A stretch of 9,216 nt of DNA. It comes from Candidatus Hodarchaeota archaeon. GTDB lineage: Archaea; Asgardarchaeota; Heimdallarchaeia; Hodarchaeales; YT1-057. The stretch lies in contig JAEOTI010000165.1 of assembly GCA_016839955.1 (NCBI GenBank), positions 1 through 9,216 on the forward strand. Reading direction: 5' to 3'. Numbering within the stretch: the first letter of the stretch is position 1; the number at the start of each line of letters is the position of its first letter. The notes beneath the pieces are model-generated. The model did not search any database and was not told the DNA's origin. It was given only the letters and a program-made list of their open reading frames with translations. A program made the translations under genes and the position numbers. This document shows positions 1 through 8,359 of the stretch, in pieces.

Positions 1-374
1 CTATGCAAATTTGGCATTATGAATACAAAGGTAGTCTAAGGATTTTTTTTACGGGAGCGTATTGTGGTGTTTTTGTTTTCGATGTCACACAACCTAATAC
101 TTTTGAAAGAATAAAATTCTGGATCGATGAATTCTGGAAACATAATGGAAGAGGCAAAATACCATTGGTTGTAGTTGGAAATAAAGTTGATTTACGAAGT
201 TTAGCTCCAAAAACTGTCGAAAAAGAGGATGGAATTCGATTTTGTAAAAAATTGTCAAATCAGATCAAATCAAAAAGTTTTGACATATCCTATTTTGAAA
301 CCTCTGTAAAATTAAACCTAAATATAGAGAGACCTTTTCTGCATATAGCTCAACAATTCCTTCAAAGAAAATAA
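1..374 (+). CDS. Ras/Rab-like small GTPase, C-terminal part (5'-truncated by window edge)
   Basis: This is the C-terminal two thirds of a Ras-superfamily small GTPase, a GTP-binding switch protein. Residues are numbered from the first ATG in the window. The guanine-specificity G4 motif NKVDL is at 60-64, preceded by a hydrophobic strand (PLVVVG). The G5-like ETSVK is at 99-103, and a typical closing helix (PFLHIAQQFL) follows. GAYCGVFVFDVT at 18-29 matches the strand after switch II in Rab proteins. The P-loop and switch I must lie upstream, so the ATG at position 3 is very unlikely to be the true start. Where Rabs read IWDTAGQ, this protein reads IWHYEYKG, so the DxxG aspartate is not visible and the segment is about four residues short. 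The C-terminus (QRK) has no cysteine for prenylation. The family call is firm; whether it hydrolyses GTP is open. Such GTPases are abundant in Asgard archaea. Confidence 0.88.
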   Translation, partial: MQIWHYEYKGSLRIFFTGAYCGVFVFDVTQPNTFERIKFWIDEFWKHNGRGKIPLVVVGNKVDLRSLAPKTVEKEDGIRFCKKLSNQIKSKSFDISYFETSVKLNLNIERPFLHIAQQFLQRK

Positions 375-556: not shown

Positions 557-1246
557 TTAATTTGGTCTAAGAATTTCCTTTTGTTCTTCTAAAACTCCTT
601 TCAAAACTTTATATATTGTATTTAGCCTGTTATAGAACCCGCTAGTATGAAATAGATGTTCTATTTTCAAAAAAAACTTATCATAATGATGAATCCATTC
701 ATGTAACAATGTGTTGAGAAATGTCTTTGGTTTTACAAACTGACATCTTTTTGCTGTTCTACTAAAGACTGAAATACTCGTTTTTTCCCTTCCCTGATTT
801 ATCCAAGTTTTATGGAGGCCATGGATTTGTGATCTACGAAAAATTGTCCTTTTCCCTCGAGTATAGACCGGTGATGGGGGTAAATTGTAAATTTTGTTTA
901 GTGAGTTAACGATATGATTCGCATTTTGGTGAATATGCTCTTCTTCTCCACTTATTAAGGCTAAACCAAGATCATTAACGAAATTTAGAACATTTGATAT
1001 TTCTTCTTGGTTTACCTTGATAGTTGCTGTTTTTGAAACTAAATAATCACATTTTTGAGAATTCGACCATTTTTTCCTAATTTTTGGTTTTAATGTTGGC
1101 CAACCAATTATACTCGCAAAAGGGACGTAATAACTGCCATTAGATGTAATAACGGTGTAGGTTTTTTTGTTGATCCTTTTGACTAAACCAGAAATTTCAA
1201 CACCTTTGTAACCAAAAGAGACTGTTTTTCCAACGTCTATAATCAT
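557..1246 (-). CDS. SprT-like zinc metalloprotease with N-terminal small beta-barrel-like domain
   Basis: Predicted cytoplasmic zinc-dependent protease of the SprT-like (Spartan-related) group; family members include proteases that degrade DNA-protein crosslinks. The zinc site is visible: HEWIH at residues 182-186 supplies two His ligands and the catalytic Glu183, and His200 in HTSGFY is the expected third ligand, matching the HExxH...HGxxF layout of SprT. Residues 75-120 look helical, and 127-165 form the strand-rich segment that precedes the active site. Residues 5-46 (VGKTVSFGYKG through YYVPFASI) look like a small SH3/KOW-type barrel that could bind nucleic acid or another partner. There is no signal peptide or membrane helix. 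The ATG is preceded by AGGGA, and a TATAAAA box lies about 35 bases upstream. It follows the membrane-protein gene on the same strand, but a terminator and 174 bp separate them, so it is probably transcribed alone. The substrate is unknown. The protease fold is well supported; a crosslink-repair role is inferred. Confidence 0.85.
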   Translation of the reverse strand: MIIDVGKTVSFGYKGVEISGLVKRINKKTYTVITSNGSYYVPFASIIGWPTLKPKIRKKWSNSQKCDYLVSKTATIKVNQEEISNVLNFVNDLGLALISGEEEHIHQNANHIVNSLNKIYNLPPSPVYTRGKRTIFRRSQIHGLHKTWINQGREKTSISVFSRTAKRCQFVKPKTFLNTLLHEWIHHYDKFFLKIEHLFHTSGFYNRLNTIYKVLKGVLEEQKEILRPN

Positions 1247-1420: not shown

Positions 1421-2956
1421 CTAACCGGATATAAATGCTTCAGCACCTGAAAGTGCAGCACCTGCAGCGAGAGCTGCAACACCCATTACTTTTCTCATCA
1501 AAGATCCTAAGTCATAAACGATTTTAACTCTAAAATTCTTACCCGCAATGATTGCTCCAGTCTCTGCATCTTCTATAAATACATTGATCGCATGAGTTCC
1601 AACATCTTGGGGGACAAGAGTTAACCATAATGCATCTGCAACTTGGAGAATTTCACTAATTGCCTTAGAAATATCGTCTCCCGCTAGATCTAAGATAGGT
1701 AAAACATGCGTTGAACCGAGGTGGACTTCCTCTCGTGGGTCTAGAGTTAAGTCTAAATCTAGCTGTGACGGTTCAAATCCAGGAGCTACAATTTTAACTC
1801 TAATTGGTCTTCTCCGCTCTATAAAGTTAGGATCATTGTTAAAGAAAAAGAGAAATAAGGGTAGTGGGTCTCCTGGATATGCTACTTGGGGTAAAGCTGC
1901 ATCAAAAAATAATTCTGTATTTCGAAATTCTGTTAAATTATCTTCTAGTTGAATCATTATGTGATCAATGATTTTAAAAAACTGTGGGATTTCTTTTTGC
2001 ATTTTTGCGAGTACCAAATCAATTTGACCAATTTCTAGGTTGGGAAAATCTCGAATCCGAGTATAAGCATCATCAACCCTAACTCTAAAGTTGATCAACG
2101 CTTCTGCTGCTGCTTCACTTATTGCGGGAAAGTTCTGAACTAAATAACGAAGATAAAGAACTAATTCTCTCACTCGTTCAAATTCTGTTTCCGTATAATC
2201 GTCTCCTAAACCTTCTTTTGTTAAATTATCAATTAATTCGCTCCACTCATCAAATTTTAGATACGCCATTGGATCCAAATAAGCCCGAAAAACTTCAGAA
2301 AGGCAATTATCTACCGCTACAGGAAATTCTTCGAGTTCATATAATGGAGATAACCCGCCATGGTAATCAAAAGTAGCCACACGAGATACTTCTCTTAATG
2401 AGGAGACTCCAAGAACTAATAGAAGAAAGAACACAGAAATTAAGTACATTGCCACATGAAAAGGAAAATCTGGAAGGTCCTGTTCATGTCCTTTTTGGTA
2501 TTCAGTTGCACCCACGCCAATTAAATAGCAAAAAAAAGCACCCACACCTAATAAAAATAACAATAATGTATTTTTTCTTGCTACTTTGAGGTTAGTAAAA
2601 ATACTATCAAATCCTCTTACAGCTCCTAATGGCATTCCTGATGCTCGATAATCCATCAGCATCATTTCAACACCTTTGACACTAATAATTGAATCTAACA
2701 AATAAACGAATAAATTGAAGATAAAAAAGAGCCAAAGAAAAACAATAAGCCAGACAGGTATGTCTGCTTCAAATGTAATAAACTGCGCTTCTTCTGATGC
2801 TGTTAATGCACCGTCAAGCCATAAAAGAATAAAAATGAGTATTGGCAGTATTACAAAACCAGGAAAAGCCACTCGCCGCCCATAAGATCCAAGTTTTCGT
2901 TCAATGCCTTGAATGAAACTGGCGCTAAATCGACTAATTTTAAACTCTTGACTCAT
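1421..2956 (-). CDS. four-helix membrane protein with helical and beta-sandwich-like cytoplasmic region, unknown function
   Basis: I do not recognise a family for this 511-residue protein. Four hydrophobic helices are visible at about 29-50, 67-91, 129-150 and 167-187. The loop between helices 2 and 3 is basic, while the loops 1-2 and 3-4 are acidic, so by the positive-inside rule both termini and the large C-terminal part face the cytoplasm. Residues 200-350 look helical and charged. Residues 350-485 look like a beta-sandwich: a PGDPLPLFLFF segment, then alternating strands including IRVKIVAPGF, THAINVFIEDA and KNFRVKIVYD. The protein ends in a Gly/Ala-rich hydrophobic stretch (489-510) that may lie on or in the membrane. 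Only two N-X-S/T sequons occur, both in the predicted cytoplasmic part. The ATG follows a weak GGATGAG ribosome site. The gene is divergent from the VWA surface-protein gene and ends in a clear terminator. A scaffold, sensor or transport accessory is possible; no catalytic motif is visible. Confidence 0.8.
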   Translation of the reverse strand: MSQEFKISRFSASFIQGIERKLGSYGRRVAFPGFVILPILIFILLWLDGALTASEEAQFITFEADIPVWLIVFLWLFFIFNLFVYLLDSIISVKGVEMMLMDYRASGMPLGAVRGFDSIFTNLKVARKNTLLLFLLGVGAFFCYLIGVGATEYQKGHEQDLPDFPFHVAMYLISVFFLLLVLGVSSLREVSRVATFDYHGGLSPLYELEEFPVAVDNCLSEVFRAYLDPMAYLKFDEWSELIDNLTKEGLGDDYTETEFERVRELVLYLRYLVQNFPAISEAAAEALINFRVRVDDAYTRIRDFPNLEIGQIDLVLAKMQKEIPQFFKIIDHIMIQLEDNLTEFRNTELFFDAALPQVAYPGDPLPLFLFFFNNDPNFIERRRPIRVKIVAPGFEPSQLDLDLTLDPREEVHLGSTHVLPILDLAGDDISKAISEILQVADALWLTLVPQDVGTHAINVFIEDAETGAIIAGKNFRVKIVYDLGSLMRKVMGVAALAAGAALSGAEAFISG

Positions 2957-3335: not shown

Positions 3336-5504
3336 ATGCACAATTCAAAAAATATTCGGATTGCGTTTCTCTTTAATTTTATATTTCTATTAAATCTTTT
3401 TAGCATAATGAATGTGGAATCAACAAGTACTGATCCTCAAGAATCCAATAATGAAAAAATAACACCTGATTTACAAACCACTAGTCAAGTTGAACTTAGA
3501 ATAATCCCAAATGCTACTTCACTTGGCGCAGGTCAGGCTGTTGAAGTCAACATTACAGTGGAGAATACTGATGACGAAACAGTATATGGAGTCAATCTTA
3601 CGCTTTCAACAGATGGCTTTGACAATGAGACAGAAGTTGAAAATTTGACTCTCTCAATTGGAACTCTAAACGCTTTCGAAAGTAATTCGTCAAAATTGCA
3701 ATTTAGTTTTCCTTCCTATGACGATATAGATTTTGTAGGAGATGCAATCGATCTTGTTTTTGTAATTGATTCAAGTGGATCCATGGGTTCTGAAATCACC
3801 GCTATCAAAACCCAACTAAATTCACTTTTAACTAATTTAACAGATAGTTATCATGATGTGCGGGTTGGGGCAGTTGTTTATGGGTCTAAGATATATTCTG
3901 AGTATCCTGCTGATGATCCACGGAACTATTTACCTCTATCTAACGATTTCATTGCCGTTAGCGAATTTATCGATGATTTGCGTGCTTATGGGGGAGAAGA
4001 GCCTTGGGGTGATGCTCTCTGGGTTGCAAATAATTTTTCCTGGCGTCTTCAAAGTCCTGTAGTAAAGATGATTGTCATAGTTGGCGATGAAGATTGTGAT
4101 CCTGGCAAACTAGTGGGCGTAGGTGTCCTAGGGGGTTATTATAATGGTTCAGAACTTTTAGCTGTCGTTGATAGTCTCAAACAAAAAAATGTTAAGGTAT
4201 ATTCAGTCGTAACAGAAGACCCCCATGAGAATGTTGCGGACCAATTTCGTTGGATATCAGAATATACAGAGGGAAAGACATTTTCACTCGATGAGGGAGG
4301 ATTAACTGCAGATGATCTTCCACAATTAATTAATGCTTGGGCATTGAACCAAACTCATGAGATGGTCGTTGAGATAACAGGTACTATTGAATGGCACTCT
4401 CCTATATTTGGTTTTCAAAAAACAAACACAACTGAGATTATCTGGATAGATCTGACTGCTCCAGATATTAGTATAAGTTCAAGTGTTCCTTTTACTATGG
4501 AAGATTCTGTCTCCTATCAAGTGTTTGCGTATGTTAATGATGTATCTAGCATCACTGCTGTGACTGGGTACTGGAAAACAACTGGGCTATGGAATTTTAC
4601 GTCTCTTGAAAAAGTAGGAAAGTCCATTTATAAATTGGAATTACCAAAATACCCATTTGGCTCAGTTGTTCAATGCTATATTAATGCGCAAGATAGTTGT
4701 GGAAATGATGGCTCAACTGAGATAATGAATATTACTATCGCTTATCCTACAGTATCAAATGGATCAATAATGCGAATTTACTCAATAAACGATTCTCTTG
4801 CGTACAAATTAAATCTTGAATCATCAGCAGATTATGTAGTATGGATTACAAGTATAAATGGAACTACAGAACCTTCCTTATATTCTACTTCCAAAATTTT
4901 TACCCCAACTTCCACATCTTCTGAAAACAATACAAAAACGTTGGTTTGGAGACAAAAGCTAAGTGGTCCTGATCTTTTAAAGATCGATGCGGTCCCGGAA
5001 GGTCTGAATGAATCTGTTTTTATCAAAATATCCTTAGCTGCTATTAAAACCCTGGATATAACAAAATATATGTTAAATTTACAAGATTTCTATTTAAATG
5101 AAACTATTCAAGTTCACACCTTTAAAATTAACGTGACATTATCTGAAAAAGACGATAATAAGACTCTCAGTTTATATTTTCCTGAGTATTCAGATTTAAT
5201 TGCAAAAATACGAGTTTACAACGAAAATTGGAGTCTTTCTGAAGGAATTGTTGATGAGTCTGGATTCTGGGCAGCATTTGACACCAATGGCATTTATTAT
5301 TTGCGTATAGATCGGGTCTTCCGTACGGGTGTTTATTCTTTCACAGGGGATATTGTTGGTTATGATCCCTATCGACAGTACTATGATGCAGAAGGAGCGG
5401 CAGATGATGCATCTTTACCTCATATTGCATTATTCTTCACCTTTTTCACACTAATAGCGTTATCTAGGACTTATCGACGAAAGAAAAATCAAAATAATGT
5501 CTAA
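3336..5504 (+). CDS. secreted, membrane-anchored VWA-domain surface glycoprotein
   Basis: A 722-residue predicted cell-surface protein. Residues 8-25 are a hydrophobic signal segment. Residues 50-125 form an Ig/CARDB-like beta domain. Residues 138-333 are a von Willebrand factor A domain, a fold for metal-dependent protein binding, with the MIDAS DSSGS at 145-149 and a third-loop Asp251 (GDEDCD). The loop GGEEPWGDAL (219-228) replaces the usual MIDAS threonine motif. It resembles the GGGDEPED type known from eukaryotic alpha-kinase VWA proteins, but with an acidic residue in place of Thr. Residues 375-470 are a second Ig/Fn3-like domain ending in AQDSCGNDG, and 480-680 continue as beta-rich sequence. 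A helix at about 693-710 followed by RTYRRKK anchors the C-terminus, leaving a tiny tail inside. I count 22 N-X-S/T sequons, all on the outer side, which suggests N-glycosylation. The gene is 44 bp upstream of the transmembrane RING gene and probably co-transcribed. The ligand is unknown; adhesion or co-receptor function is inferred. Confidence 0.88.
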   Translation: MHNSKNIRIAFLFNFIFLLNLFSIMNVESTSTDPQESNNEKITPDLQTTSQVELRIIPNATSLGAGQAVEVNITVENTDDETVYGVNLTLSTDGFDNETEVENLTLSIGTLNAFESNSSKLQFSFPSYDDIDFVGDAIDLVFVIDSSGSMGSEITAIKTQLNSLLTNLTDSYHDVRVGAVVYGSKIYSEYPADDPRNYLPLSNDFIAVSEFIDDLRAYGGEEPWGDALWVANNFSWRLQSPVVKMIVIVGDEDCDPGKLVGVGVLGGYYNGSELLAVVDSLKQKNVKVYSVVTEDPHENVADQFRWISEYTEGKTFSLDEGGLTADDLPQLINAWALNQTHEMVVEITGTIEWHSPIFGFQKTNTTEIIWIDLTAPDISISSSVPFTMEDSVSYQVFAYVNDVSSITAVTGYWKTTGLWNFTSLEKVGKSIYKLELPKYPFGSVVQCYINAQDSCGNDGSTEIMNITIAYPTVSNGSIMRIYSINDSLAYKLNLESSADYVVWITSINGTTEPSLYSTSKIFTPTSTSSENNTKTLVWRQKLSGPDLLKIDAVPEGLNESVFIKISLAAIKTLDITKYMLNLQDFYLNETIQVHTFKINVTLSEKDDNKTLSLYFPEYSDLIAKIRVYNENWSLSEGIVDESGFWAAFDTNGIYYLRIDRVFRTGVYSFTGDIVGYDPYRQYYDAEGAADDASLPHIALFFTFFTLIALSRTYRRKKNQNNV

Positions 5505-5537: not shown

Positions 5538-5554
5538 GAGGTTGTCTCTTGGTG
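5538..5554 (+). promoter_or_regulatory. GAGGT ribosome site and TTG/GTG start choice of the TM-RING gene
   Basis: GAGGT (5538-5542) is a canonical Shine-Dalgarno core. It lies six bases before a TTG (5549) and nine bases before an in-frame GTG (5552). Either gives a signal peptide beginning (M)VFPIKNDVR. No ATG is available before the hydrophobic segment. GTG is the commoner archaeal choice; TTG has the tighter spacing. The difference is one residue. Confidence 0.6.
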
Positions 5555-8359
5555 TTCCCAATTAAAAATGATGTAAGAATTCTTCCAATTCTTTTTATTG
5601 TTTTATCTGTCTCAATAAGCCTTTTTCCATCAACCATTCAACCATCTAACTGCTTTGACTTTCATTCAAATGGATCAAGCCCTAGTTCATTTATATATTT
5701 TGAAAACAGTTCAACCTCTCAAGTAGCAACCTGGTTCGATACAATTCCTAGCACTATCTTAACTTGCTCAGACACTTTCCAACTTGAATCAACGCAGGAC
5801 ACTTACGTTGTATTAGGTGGGTATTCATCAAAATATGGCCAACAAAACGCCCAATTACGAATTGGAAACATTTCTAAGAGCGAAATAGATATTTTAGATG
5901 ATGAAATTTTATTAAATAATACTACCTCACGCATTACACAAGTAGAGATTGCAACTAACAATCTAATCGTTGCTGGAGGACAGATCACTGCTATAGATGA
6001 AGATTATTTTCTATTTGTGACTTTTTTAAATGAAGAACAGAAATTTGTCACTAATACTTCTGTTTCGTGGTTTATTACTAATCCTGAACGAACACTTCGT
6101 CAAATTAAACTTATAGAAGATGAAAATAAAATATTAATTATAACTGTAGAAACAAATTATACTCAAGTTTCACCCATTTATTCTCGAGTTTATCAAATAG
6201 AAAATAATTCATCAATTTCTTTGCTCTCTGAGACTCAAATTGATGCTGCAGTACCTGTGACATTTTGTGCAACCTCCAATTCTTCTATTAATAACCTTGA
6301 CTTTATAGTAGCTGCTCGGGTACAAGGATTTATGAATGTAATAGCTCTTTATAATCTAGAGAATTCATCAGGGAGTATGATGACTAATTTTCTCAGTAAT
6401 TTCTCTATATCGGTTGATCAACTATATTCAAGACAACTAATGATTGATTCAAGTTCCACTAATTATCCCTATCAAATGTTATTATTAGGTGAAGAACTCA
6501 ATAATAGTCTTAAAACTCCATTTATTCTAGAAATCATGGTTTTGAATAAGAACAGTGTTTCTTGGGGTCAATATTCTCAAATGGGAGACACGACATTAAA
6601 TTATGAATCGGAGGATGCTTTTTTTGTAGATTTTGATAATAATGGAATATTTGAATTGATTTGGCAAATAACGGCCAGTTCCCAGCTTGGAGATTCAATT
6701 CATAAAGAAATTTGGTTGGTGGACCTAGAATTCGACCCGACTTTAATTAAAGTCACAGAAATTGATTCCACTGCTACTTTAAAGGCTTTTGCGACTGGAG
6801 CATCACTATCTAATGATAATTCGTTTCTCTTATCTTGTGGATATATCGTAAATGGAACAGAAAACTATGCTCAATTGGATTTACTTTCAATCCATCCATT
6901 CAGTATAACAATAGAATTAGAACGACGAGTTTGGATCTTTGGAGGAACTCTCGATGGATTAGCGAGACTTGAATGGTGGTCTGGTGATCCTGTTAGCTCA
7001 TTACTAATCAATTTTCTCTTGTTGGACTCTATAAATCAAGAAATCTCTAACCAGTCTTCAATGACTGATGAAATCGGTTATACTTTTTTTTCGCATCAAC
7101 TTCCATATGTTGAGGAGCCAATGTTCTATAATTTCTCAATATCATCAAATTTAAATGGTTGGAGTTCTGATGAAATCCTAATTGAGGTATGGCTAGATTG
7201 GTTTGATGAGATAAGCTTCGATTTCTCCTTCCATGACTCATATGGAGGGAAAGTAAGTGGTAACTTGTATCTTCAAAATTTATTTTCGAGAAACGAGACT
7301 TTTCTCATAAGTATCGTAGATCCAACAAGTTCTCTTCGTAGCTTTCGAGATTATCGGAATCCGACTATTTTAGAGCAACAAGGTGATCAATTAGCTTCAT
7401 TAAGTGTCTCTAGATCAAATAGCTTTTCTAATGCGTGGAATAATACCCCATTCACGCTAACTACAATGGAGTCAATTGATTTAGTATTCGATGCCACAAT
7501 AAAAGTTGATCATTCAGTTTCATTAACTCTCAATATAAATAGCTCCCTTATCTCTTATCCATTTGTTTCAATTCGTATTACTTCTGAAGAAATATGGTTT
7601 TCACCACTATTTCAATTGACTATTCTTGTTTTGCTTTCGCTTCTTCTCTCATCAGTTTTTTTCATAGGTTATCAAATGAAAAGAAAAAGACAACAGATAC
7701 AAATGCTATCAAGTCTTCCACGTATTCAACCCATTGATTTAGCACAGGTATCTGTTCAGCTTCAAAGAAGTCAACCACTTGTTACTCGTTTGGTACTTAA
7801 AACAATCCCCGGTTTTATCTCGAAGTCAAATAGTAATCTTTTCTTTCCGTCCCAGTATTTAACAATAATGACTCAGGAACTTTTAGAACTCGAATCAGTT
7901 AAATCAATAGTAGAGCTTTCGGATCAACTCGACATTCATTTTAAGGAAGCTAAAATATTAATTGCAGATCTTCGCTACAGGGCGATTAAAGAAGACAATA
8001 AGAAAATGAAGAATAATCTGCGTTTGCTACTTGTAGATTCATCAATGATTAAGAAACTCGGATTAAAAGATGTAGATGGTGAATATTTACTCGAAGAACC
8101 TATTCTTGCAACCCCACAGGAAGTTGAAGTCGATACTCGACCAGTAGCTTGTATTTATTGTGGAGAATTGCTTCATGGCACAAAGTCTTGTCCTAGTTGC
8201 CATAAGGAACGGTTAAAATGTTCAATTTGCCGTTTAACTATATCTTTTGGAGAACAAACCACCAAATGCCCAAGCTGCAGTGCAATGTTTCATCAGGCTC
8301 ATTTAGATGAGTGGTTGAAAATCAAAGGTAATTGCCCTGTTTGTGGACAGAATATCTAG
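5549..8359 (+). CDS. single-pass transmembrane protein with large ectodomain and cytoplasmic zinc-ribbon plus RING-like domain (candidate receptor-type E3)
   Basis: A 936-residue predicted type I membrane protein. The signal segment is at 10-27. The ectodomain (about 35-680) is beta-rich; DFDNNGIFEL at 361-370 matches the calcium-binding loop of integrin-like FG-GAP repeats, so 80-470 may be a beta-propeller, with Ig-like sequence at 540-675. One membrane helix spans about 683-709, followed by KRKR. The tail has a helical, winged-helix-like segment (770-815), a zinc ribbon C868-C871/C881-C884, and a RING-like module C891-C894, C907-C910, H915-H918, C929-C932, eight ligands in cross-brace order. 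Ile893, Trp922 and Pro930 occupy the positions that contact E2 enzymes in eukaryotic RINGs; the usual linchpin Arg after the last Cys is Gly933. All 19 sequons precede the membrane helix, which fits this topology. RING proteins with E1, E2 and ubiquitin genes are known from Asgard archaea. Ligase activity is inferred. A structural zinc domain related to prokaryotic RING families is the alternative. Confidence 0.87.
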   Translation: MVFPIKNDVRILPILFIVLSVSISLFPSTIQPSNCFDFHSNGSSPSSFIYFENSSTSQVATWFDTIPSTILTCSDTFQLESTQDTYVVLGGYSSKYGQQNAQLRIGNISKSEIDILDDEILLNNTTSRITQVEIATNNLIVAGGQITAIDEDYFLFVTFLNEEQKFVTNTSVSWFITNPERTLRQIKLIEDENKILIITVETNYTQVSPIYSRVYQIENNSSISLLSETQIDAAVPVTFCATSNSSINNLDFIVAARVQGFMNVIALYNLENSSGSMMTNFLSNFSISVDQLYSRQLMIDSSSTNYPYQMLLLGEELNNSLKTPFILEIMVLNKNSVSWGQYSQMGDTTLNYESEDAFFVDFDNNGIFELIWQITASSQLGDSIHKEIWLVDLEFDPTLIKVTEIDSTATLKAFATGASLSNDNSFLLSCGYIVNGTENYAQLDLLSIHPFSITIELERRVWIFGGTLDGLARLEWWSGDPVSSLLINFLLLDSINQEISNQSSMTDEIGYTFFSHQLPYVEEPMFYNFSISSNLNGWSSDEILIEVWLDWFDEISFDFSFHDSYGGKVSGNLYLQNLFSRNETFLISIVDPTSSLRSFRDYRNPTILEQQGDQLASLSVSRSNSFSNAWNNTPFTLTTMESIDLVFDATIKVDHSVSLTLNINSSLISYPFVSIRITSEEIWFSPLFQLTILVLLSLLLSSVFFIGYQMKRKRQQIQMLSSLPRIQPIDLAQVSVQLQRSQPLVTRLVLKTIPGFISKSNSNLFFPSQYLTIMTQELLELESVKSIVELSDQLDIHFKEAKILIADLRYRAIKEDNKKMKNNLRLLLVDSSMIKKLGLKDVDGEYLLEEPILATPQEVEVDTRPVACIYCGELLHGTKSCPSCHKERLKCSICRLTISFGEQTTKCPSCSAMFHQAHLDEWLKIKGNCPVCGQNI

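What the first reader, a model, noticed from the sequence alone, without database searches (positions are those of the whole stretch)
5549..8359. Archaeal protein with the layout of a receptor-type transmembrane RING E3
Signal peptide, glycosylated-looking beta-rich ectodomain, one membrane helix, then a basic juxtamembrane stretch, winged-helix-like segment, zinc ribbon and RING-like domain in one chain. Eukaryotes use ectodomain-TM-RING proteins to couple surface or lumenal sensing to ubiquitination and membrane-protein turnover. In an Asgard archaeon this would link the archaeal ubiquitin system to the cell surface. The order of parts is read from the sequence; E3 function is inferred.
Basis: partly seen in the sequence, partly recalled or inferred. 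Interest (0 to 1): 0.75.

Follow-up and report, generated by a model that had tools for sequence, protein, structure and literature searches.

The report
Archaeal surface protein with cytosolic RING
An Asgard-type archaeon carries a one-pass membrane protein with a large outer domain and an inner zinc RING domain, laid out like some membrane ubiquitin ligases of animals, but lacking the residue that usually makes such domains active.

Summary
The layout is real. The 936-residue protein at 5549-8359 has a signal peptide, a 650-residue beta-rich outer part, one membrane helix, a basic stop, a winged-helix-like helical domain, a zinc ribbon and a RING. Pfam zf-RING_2 passes its cut-off, and the predicted RING fits RNF165 bound to E2~ubiquitin at 1.1-1.3 A over 47 residues. 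Four relatives, three of them named Hodarchaeota/Hodarchaeales, keep the parts they cover; against three of them the RING is the best conserved part (65-70% identity, 21-43% elsewhere). Residues that matter for E2 docking in an archaeal RING E3 (Ile, Trp) are present in 5 of 5. Against simple E3 function, the basic 'linchpin' after the last cysteine is Gly, Asn or Ser in 5 of 5; in RNF38 these are poor replacements. The joined ribbon-RING also resembles the GATOR2/SEA C-terminal domain, where RINGs hold complexes together. The window's genome is not held, so E1, E2 and ubiquitin could not be sought in it. Most likely a receptor-like RING protein that docks an E2 and acts as a weak or partner-dependent ligase (0.45); a RING-based assembly platform is a close rival (0.35).

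The parts
5549..8359 (+). whole ORF, 936 aa, membrane RING protein (TTG start; GTG at 5552 also possible)
5549..5647 (+). signal peptide, residues 1 to about 33
   Evidence: hydropathy 2.17 at residues 9-27; the cleavage site is inferred
6068..6889 (+). beta-rich part, residues about 174-447, propeller-like, with one DxDxNG motif (6629-6646)
   Evidence: strands in a low-confidence model, matches to propeller proteins among others, motif in 4 of 4 members that cover it
6932..7201 (+). MG2/Ig-like beta domain, residues about 462-551
   Evidence: MG2 in 3 of 5 members, best E 0.0093, P0003 16.1 bits against a cut-off of 32.8; not listed for the window's own protein
7610..7666 (+). single transmembrane helix, residues 688-706
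   Evidence: hydropathy 2.41; helix in model
7673..7690 (+). basic stop QMKRKR, residues 709-714
   Evidence: sequence
7706..8032 (+). winged-helix-like helical domain, residues 720-828
8150..8200 (+). zinc ribbon C868-x2-C871-x9-C881-x2-C884
   Evidence: ligands invariant in 5 of 5
8219..8344 (+). RING, C891 C894 C907 C910 H915 H918 C929 C932
   Evidence: Pfam; RNF165 1.1-1.3 A over 47 residues
8345..8347 (+). linchpin position, residue 933, Gly here; Asn, Ser, Asn, Asn in P0003-P0006
3336..5504 (+). neighbour with signal peptide, VWA domain (DSSGS) and C-terminal hydrophobic stretch; 44 bases upstream, probable operon partner
   Evidence: Pfam VWA 8.8e-12; hydropathy 2.07 at residues 9-27 and 1.74 at 692-710; operon inferred

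Best explanation
A type I, single-pass surface protein of a Hodarchaeota-like archaeon. Its outer beta-rich part binds a ligand or partner, perhaps the VWA surface protein encoded just upstream. Inside, the winged-helix and ribbon-RING tail docks an E2-type ubiquitin carrier and brings ubiquitin to the protein itself or to partner membrane proteins, as a weak or partner-dependent ligase (heterodimer, clustering or a high-activity E2), for sorting by the ubiquitin-ESCRT pathway. Shown here: the order of parts, the RING fold by model, conserved E2-docking residues. Inferred: topology (from signal peptide and basic stop), E2 binding, ubiquitin transfer, partner, ESCRT sorting.
Against: No basic linchpin in 5 of 5 members, nor in the distant P0007. 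RNF38 with Gly, Asn or Ser there binds E2~Ub 36, 42 and 24 times more weakly, and of the variants assayed all but Lys and Met, so Ser too, had minimal activity (PMC12326332, passages). R69A impaired the archaeal srfp, whose authors call this residue Lys or Arg in all RING E3s. None of the 6 ORFs scanned matches a ubiquitin, E1, E2 or JAB family. Ubiquitin genes of this genome were not searchable. In one search the GATOR2 match outranks the RNF165 match.
Confidence: 0.45

Rival explanations
1. The ribbon-RING is an assembly module, as in the C-terminal domains of the GATOR2/SEA subunits: it pairs with another RING and links the surface protein to a cytosolic scaffold; no ubiquitin transfer.
Against: By sequence the RING is nearer chains named E3 ligases (7e-7, 4.5e-6) than GATOR2 chains (0.17 and worse, 0.01 and worse). 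The E2-docking Ile, Trp and Pro are kept. The Foldseek alignments of ranks 1-18 run across the low-confidence linker at 13.5-20.3 A rmsd.
Confidence: 0.35
2. The tail is a UFL1/DDRGK1-like winged-helix scaffold near the membrane for a ubiquitin-like modifier, the RING being an accessory.
Against: The tool warns that mostly helical models reach such Z without clear kinship. No DDRGK or UFL1 family is listed up to E 10 for the helical pieces of three members, and the window's piece finds no solved chain by sequence.
Confidence: 0.1
3. An ordinary anchored surface protein whose zinc tail binds nucleic acid or other cytosolic proteins unrelated to ubiquitin.
For: RING and ribbon folds occur outside ubiquitin pathways; a chain named aS34 (9fhl_a; archaeal ribosome, recalled) gives E 0.0099.
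Against: The RING is by far the best conserved part and keeps the three E2-docking residues.
Confidence: 0.1

Closest known systems
PA-TM-RING family (RNF13, RNF128/GRAIL and others)
   Same: signal peptide, outer domain, one helix, RING, in that order (PMC4021871, passages)
   Different: no PA domain listed; outer part about five times larger than a PA domain (that size recalled) and strand-rich; extra winged-helix and ribbon; no basic linchpin
Caldiarchaeum small RING finger protein (srfp)
   Same: archaeal RING with Ile and Trp at nearly the same spacing and an additional cysteine near C3 (PMC5654768)
   Different: srfp is small, encoded in an operon with ubiquitin genes, and has Arg69 at the linchpin; here a 936-aa membrane protein with Gly
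GATOR2/SEA and IFT-A C-terminal zinc-ribbon plus RING domains
   Same: ribbon then RING at the C-terminus; 71 residues superpose at 3.3 A, 27% identity
   Different: SEA subunits have propeller and alpha-solenoid before the RING; here a membrane helix and winged helix precede
RNF165/ARK2C RING
   Same: 36% identity and 1.1-1.3 A over 47 residues
   Different: ARK2C is soluble (recalled); here ligand 4 is a Cys three after C3 and the linchpin Arg is absent

Membership tests
RING domain (zf-RING_2) | profile score over curated cut-off | tested here: met
   28.7 against 27.3 bits; P0003 31.0 and P0006 33.8; scores of P0004 and P0005 not shown one by one
RING domain (zf-RING_2) | eight zinc ligands and RING fold | tested here: met
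   8 of 8 ligands invariant in 5 of 5; fold match 1.1-1.3 A; zinc not modelled, cross-brace distances not measured
RING-type E3 ubiquitin ligase | E2-docking Ile, Trp, Pro | tested here: met
   I893, W922, P930 invariant in 5 of 5
RING-type E3 ubiquitin ligase | basic linchpin after C8 (usual, not universal) | tested here: not met
   G, N, S, N, N in five members; Ser occurs in TRIM32, described as active (PMC11992055, passage)
RING-type E3 ubiquitin ligase | ubiquitin transfer with cognate E2 | not testable with these tools
   needs proteins; no whole genome held
PA-TM-RING | signal peptide, outer domain, TM, RING order | tested here: met
PA-TM-RING | PA domain | tested here: not met
   not among the 7 families up to E 1 for the window's protein, nor among the 25 of 27 families shown for five members; only four of these reach the outer part, two of them cut
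PA-TM-RING | RING-H2 (C3H2C3) ligands | tested here: not met
   order here is C4H2C2: C891 C894 C907 C910 H915 H918 C929 C932
archaeal srfp | small protein in an operon with ubiquitin, E1, E2 | tested here: not met
   936 aa; none of 6 ORFs scanned is a ubiquitin-system gene; only 9.2 kb seen
GATOR2/SEA-type C-terminal domain | ribbon-RING fold | tested here: met
GATOR2/SEA-type C-terminal domain | propeller plus alpha-solenoid and RING in one soluble chain | tested here: not met
   membrane helix 688-706 separates the beta part from the tail
UFL1/DDRGK1 | family profile and fold | tested here: inconclusive

The most novel reading that the evidence does not exclude
A receptor-type membrane RING ligase existed in the archaeal lineage placed nearest to eukaryotes: outer-surface binding is passed through one helix to an E2-docking RING, marking surface proteins for ESCRT sorting before endomembranes arose.
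Probability: 0.3. Interest if true: 0.85.

Novelty: new variant of a known kind. Interest (0 to 1): 0.55.

Why it matters
The archaeal ubiquitin and ESCRT proteins of the two papers seen (PMC9192718, PMC5654768) are soluble parts; what would select membrane cargo is, as far as I saw, open. A surface protein with a cytosolic E2-docking RING would be a candidate for that step and would put receptor-type RING proteins before the origin of eukaryotes. If instead the RING only assembles complexes, it would point to an archaeal root of the ribbon-RING junctions of coat-like complexes.

Tried and rejected
Two genome-contig scans, with the whole-protein and the tail alignment, gave no relative among 57 and 77 stretches; each demands 8-residue patterns, so this is no proof of absence. 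One viral-contig scan: 0 of 220 stretches; phage records: no match to the tail. A protein search with the whole alignment returned only the window's own protein, not even the known relatives, because candidates were capped; not used as evidence. The 14 control genomes gave no zf-RING_2 match: uninformative.

Rejected: artefact or chimera (relatives keep the layout or tail); multi-pass protein (two hydropathy places); known anti-phage defence protein (no PADLOC match up to E 0.01 for the ORF). Foldseek hits of the full-length model (GH43 enzymes, CBMs, integrins) were set aside: mean pLDDT 46, rmsd 12.9 A and more. Taken as chance: 2iak (plakin) over the helical part, E 0.0012 and 0.0077; LARP1 (0.22) and Izumo (0.16); ThiS (best 0.0057) and Htt_bridge (best 0.0082), both below cut-off. 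Sequon asymmetry is only weak support. Paper searches on RING or ubiquitin in Asgards showed no transmembrane RING by title or start of abstract; subscription papers are not covered. One search was spoilt by a term read as LC3. A 2011 survey of prokaryotic RINGs, seen only in the reference list of PMC4678705, is not held.

Full report
What was checked. Residue numbers below follow the 936-aa form; searches count one less. Hydropathy above 1.6 occurs at two places only, the N-terminus and residues 688-706: a signal peptide and one membrane helix, hence, by inference, type I topology with the C-terminal 228 residues inside. The tail begins with QMKRKR and holds ten cysteines, all in two zinc modules: a ribbon (C868, C871, C881, C884) and a RING (C891, C894, C907, C910, H915, H918, C929, C932).

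Family. A search of about 5.8 billion proteins with residues 690-936 gave three relatives besides the window's own protein; a search with the tail alignment gave one more tail, P0006, and a distant small membrane RING protein, P0007. P0004 and P0005 (cut at the N-terminus) are named Candidatus Hodarchaeota, and P0006 Candidatus Hodarchaeales; P0003 is full length and unnamed. Identity to the window's tail is 38-41%. By region, against P0003-P0005, the RING stands out: 65-70%, against 28-30% in the first outer part, 27-29% in the MG2-like part, 39-43% near the membrane, 21-29% in the membrane helix, 35-38% in the winged-helix part, 22-27% in the linker and 39% in the ribbon. Selection is therefore focused on the RING.

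Does it look able to work as an E3? For: Ile893, Trp922 and Pro930, the usual E2-docking residues, are invariant in 5 of 5. In the Caldiarchaeum cascade I30Q abolished and W58A impaired ubiquitination (PMC5654768, passages); the spacing I to W is 28 there and 29 here, W to linchpin 11 in both (from the paper's residue numbers). Against: R69A also impaired that cascade, and the authors call the residue Lys or Arg in all RING E3s; the same position here is Gly in the window and Asn, Ser, Asn, Asn in P0003-P0006. In RNF38, Gly, Ser and Asn at this position weaken E2~ubiquitin binding 36, 24 and 42 times; of the 19 replacements only Glu (44 times) is worse than Asn. Of the variants assayed all but Lys and Met, so Ser too, had minimal activity (PMC12326332, passages). 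The position is not absolute: TRIM32 has Ser and is described as active (PMC11992055, passage), and the yeast ERAD ligase Doa10 (printed Doa1) has His and uses an E2 of high basal activity. So a weak or partner-dependent ligase is possible, a strong stand-alone one is unlikely.

The outer part. It is nearly all strands in the full-length model, at low confidence. Residues about 173-446 match propeller proteins among many others. A DxDxNG motif occurs in the four members that reach it. An MG2-like domain is listed in 3 of 5 members, best E 0.0093; P0003's score is below the cut-off. A ligand cannot be named. Sequons are found only outside (19, 20, 21, 17 against none), but once Asn content is allowed for this is weak (P 0.012-0.058).

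Surroundings. Forty-four bases upstream on the same strand lies a 722-aa surface protein with a signal peptide, a VWA domain with DSSGS, and a C-terminal hydrophobic stretch (1.74) followed by a basic end. A shared operon is likely but inferred. Other ORFs: the end of a Ras-like GTPase, a 511-aa membrane protein, a 229-aa protein with a weak SprT-like match, and an EamA transporter. None of the six scanned is a ubiquitin-system gene.

Ubiquitin system of the host. It could not be searched. From print: Hodarchaeales genomes are described as enriched in ubiquitin-system proteins (PMC12077186, passage), and most Asgard genomes, Thorarchaeota excepted, are said to encode large parts of a ubiquitin-ESCRT system (PMC9192718, section 6; Hodarchaeota are not named there).

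Verdict. I commit to a receptor-like membrane RING protein that docks an E2 and is a weak or partner-dependent ligase (0.45), with a RING-based assembly platform close behind (0.35).

Noticed in passing
window 3336-5504 (+): 722-aa VWA surface protein with DSSGS motif, 22 N-x-S/T sequons and a basic C-terminus, 44 bases upstream of the RING gene; possible operon partner.
   Followed up: partly
P0007 (186 aa, 5205-base contig, source without organism name): A different membrane protein with two hydrophobic stretches (16-34 and 46-64) and the same RING pattern, also with Gly at the linchpin position; suggests more membrane RING proteins without a linchpin in such microbes.
   Followed up: partly
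window 557-1246 (-): 229-aa protein with an HEWIHH motif, a weak SprT-like match (E 0.039, below cut-off) and a weak PADLOC SIR2 match (E 0.0051); possibly a zinc metalloprotease.
   Followed up: no
window 3-374 (+): C-terminal part of a Ras-like GTPase (Pfam Ras 1.7e-16), in line with an Asgard origin.
   Followed up: no
window 1421-2956 (-): 511-aa protein with about four strong hydrophobic stretches between residues 29 and 184 and no family above cut-off.
   Followed up: no
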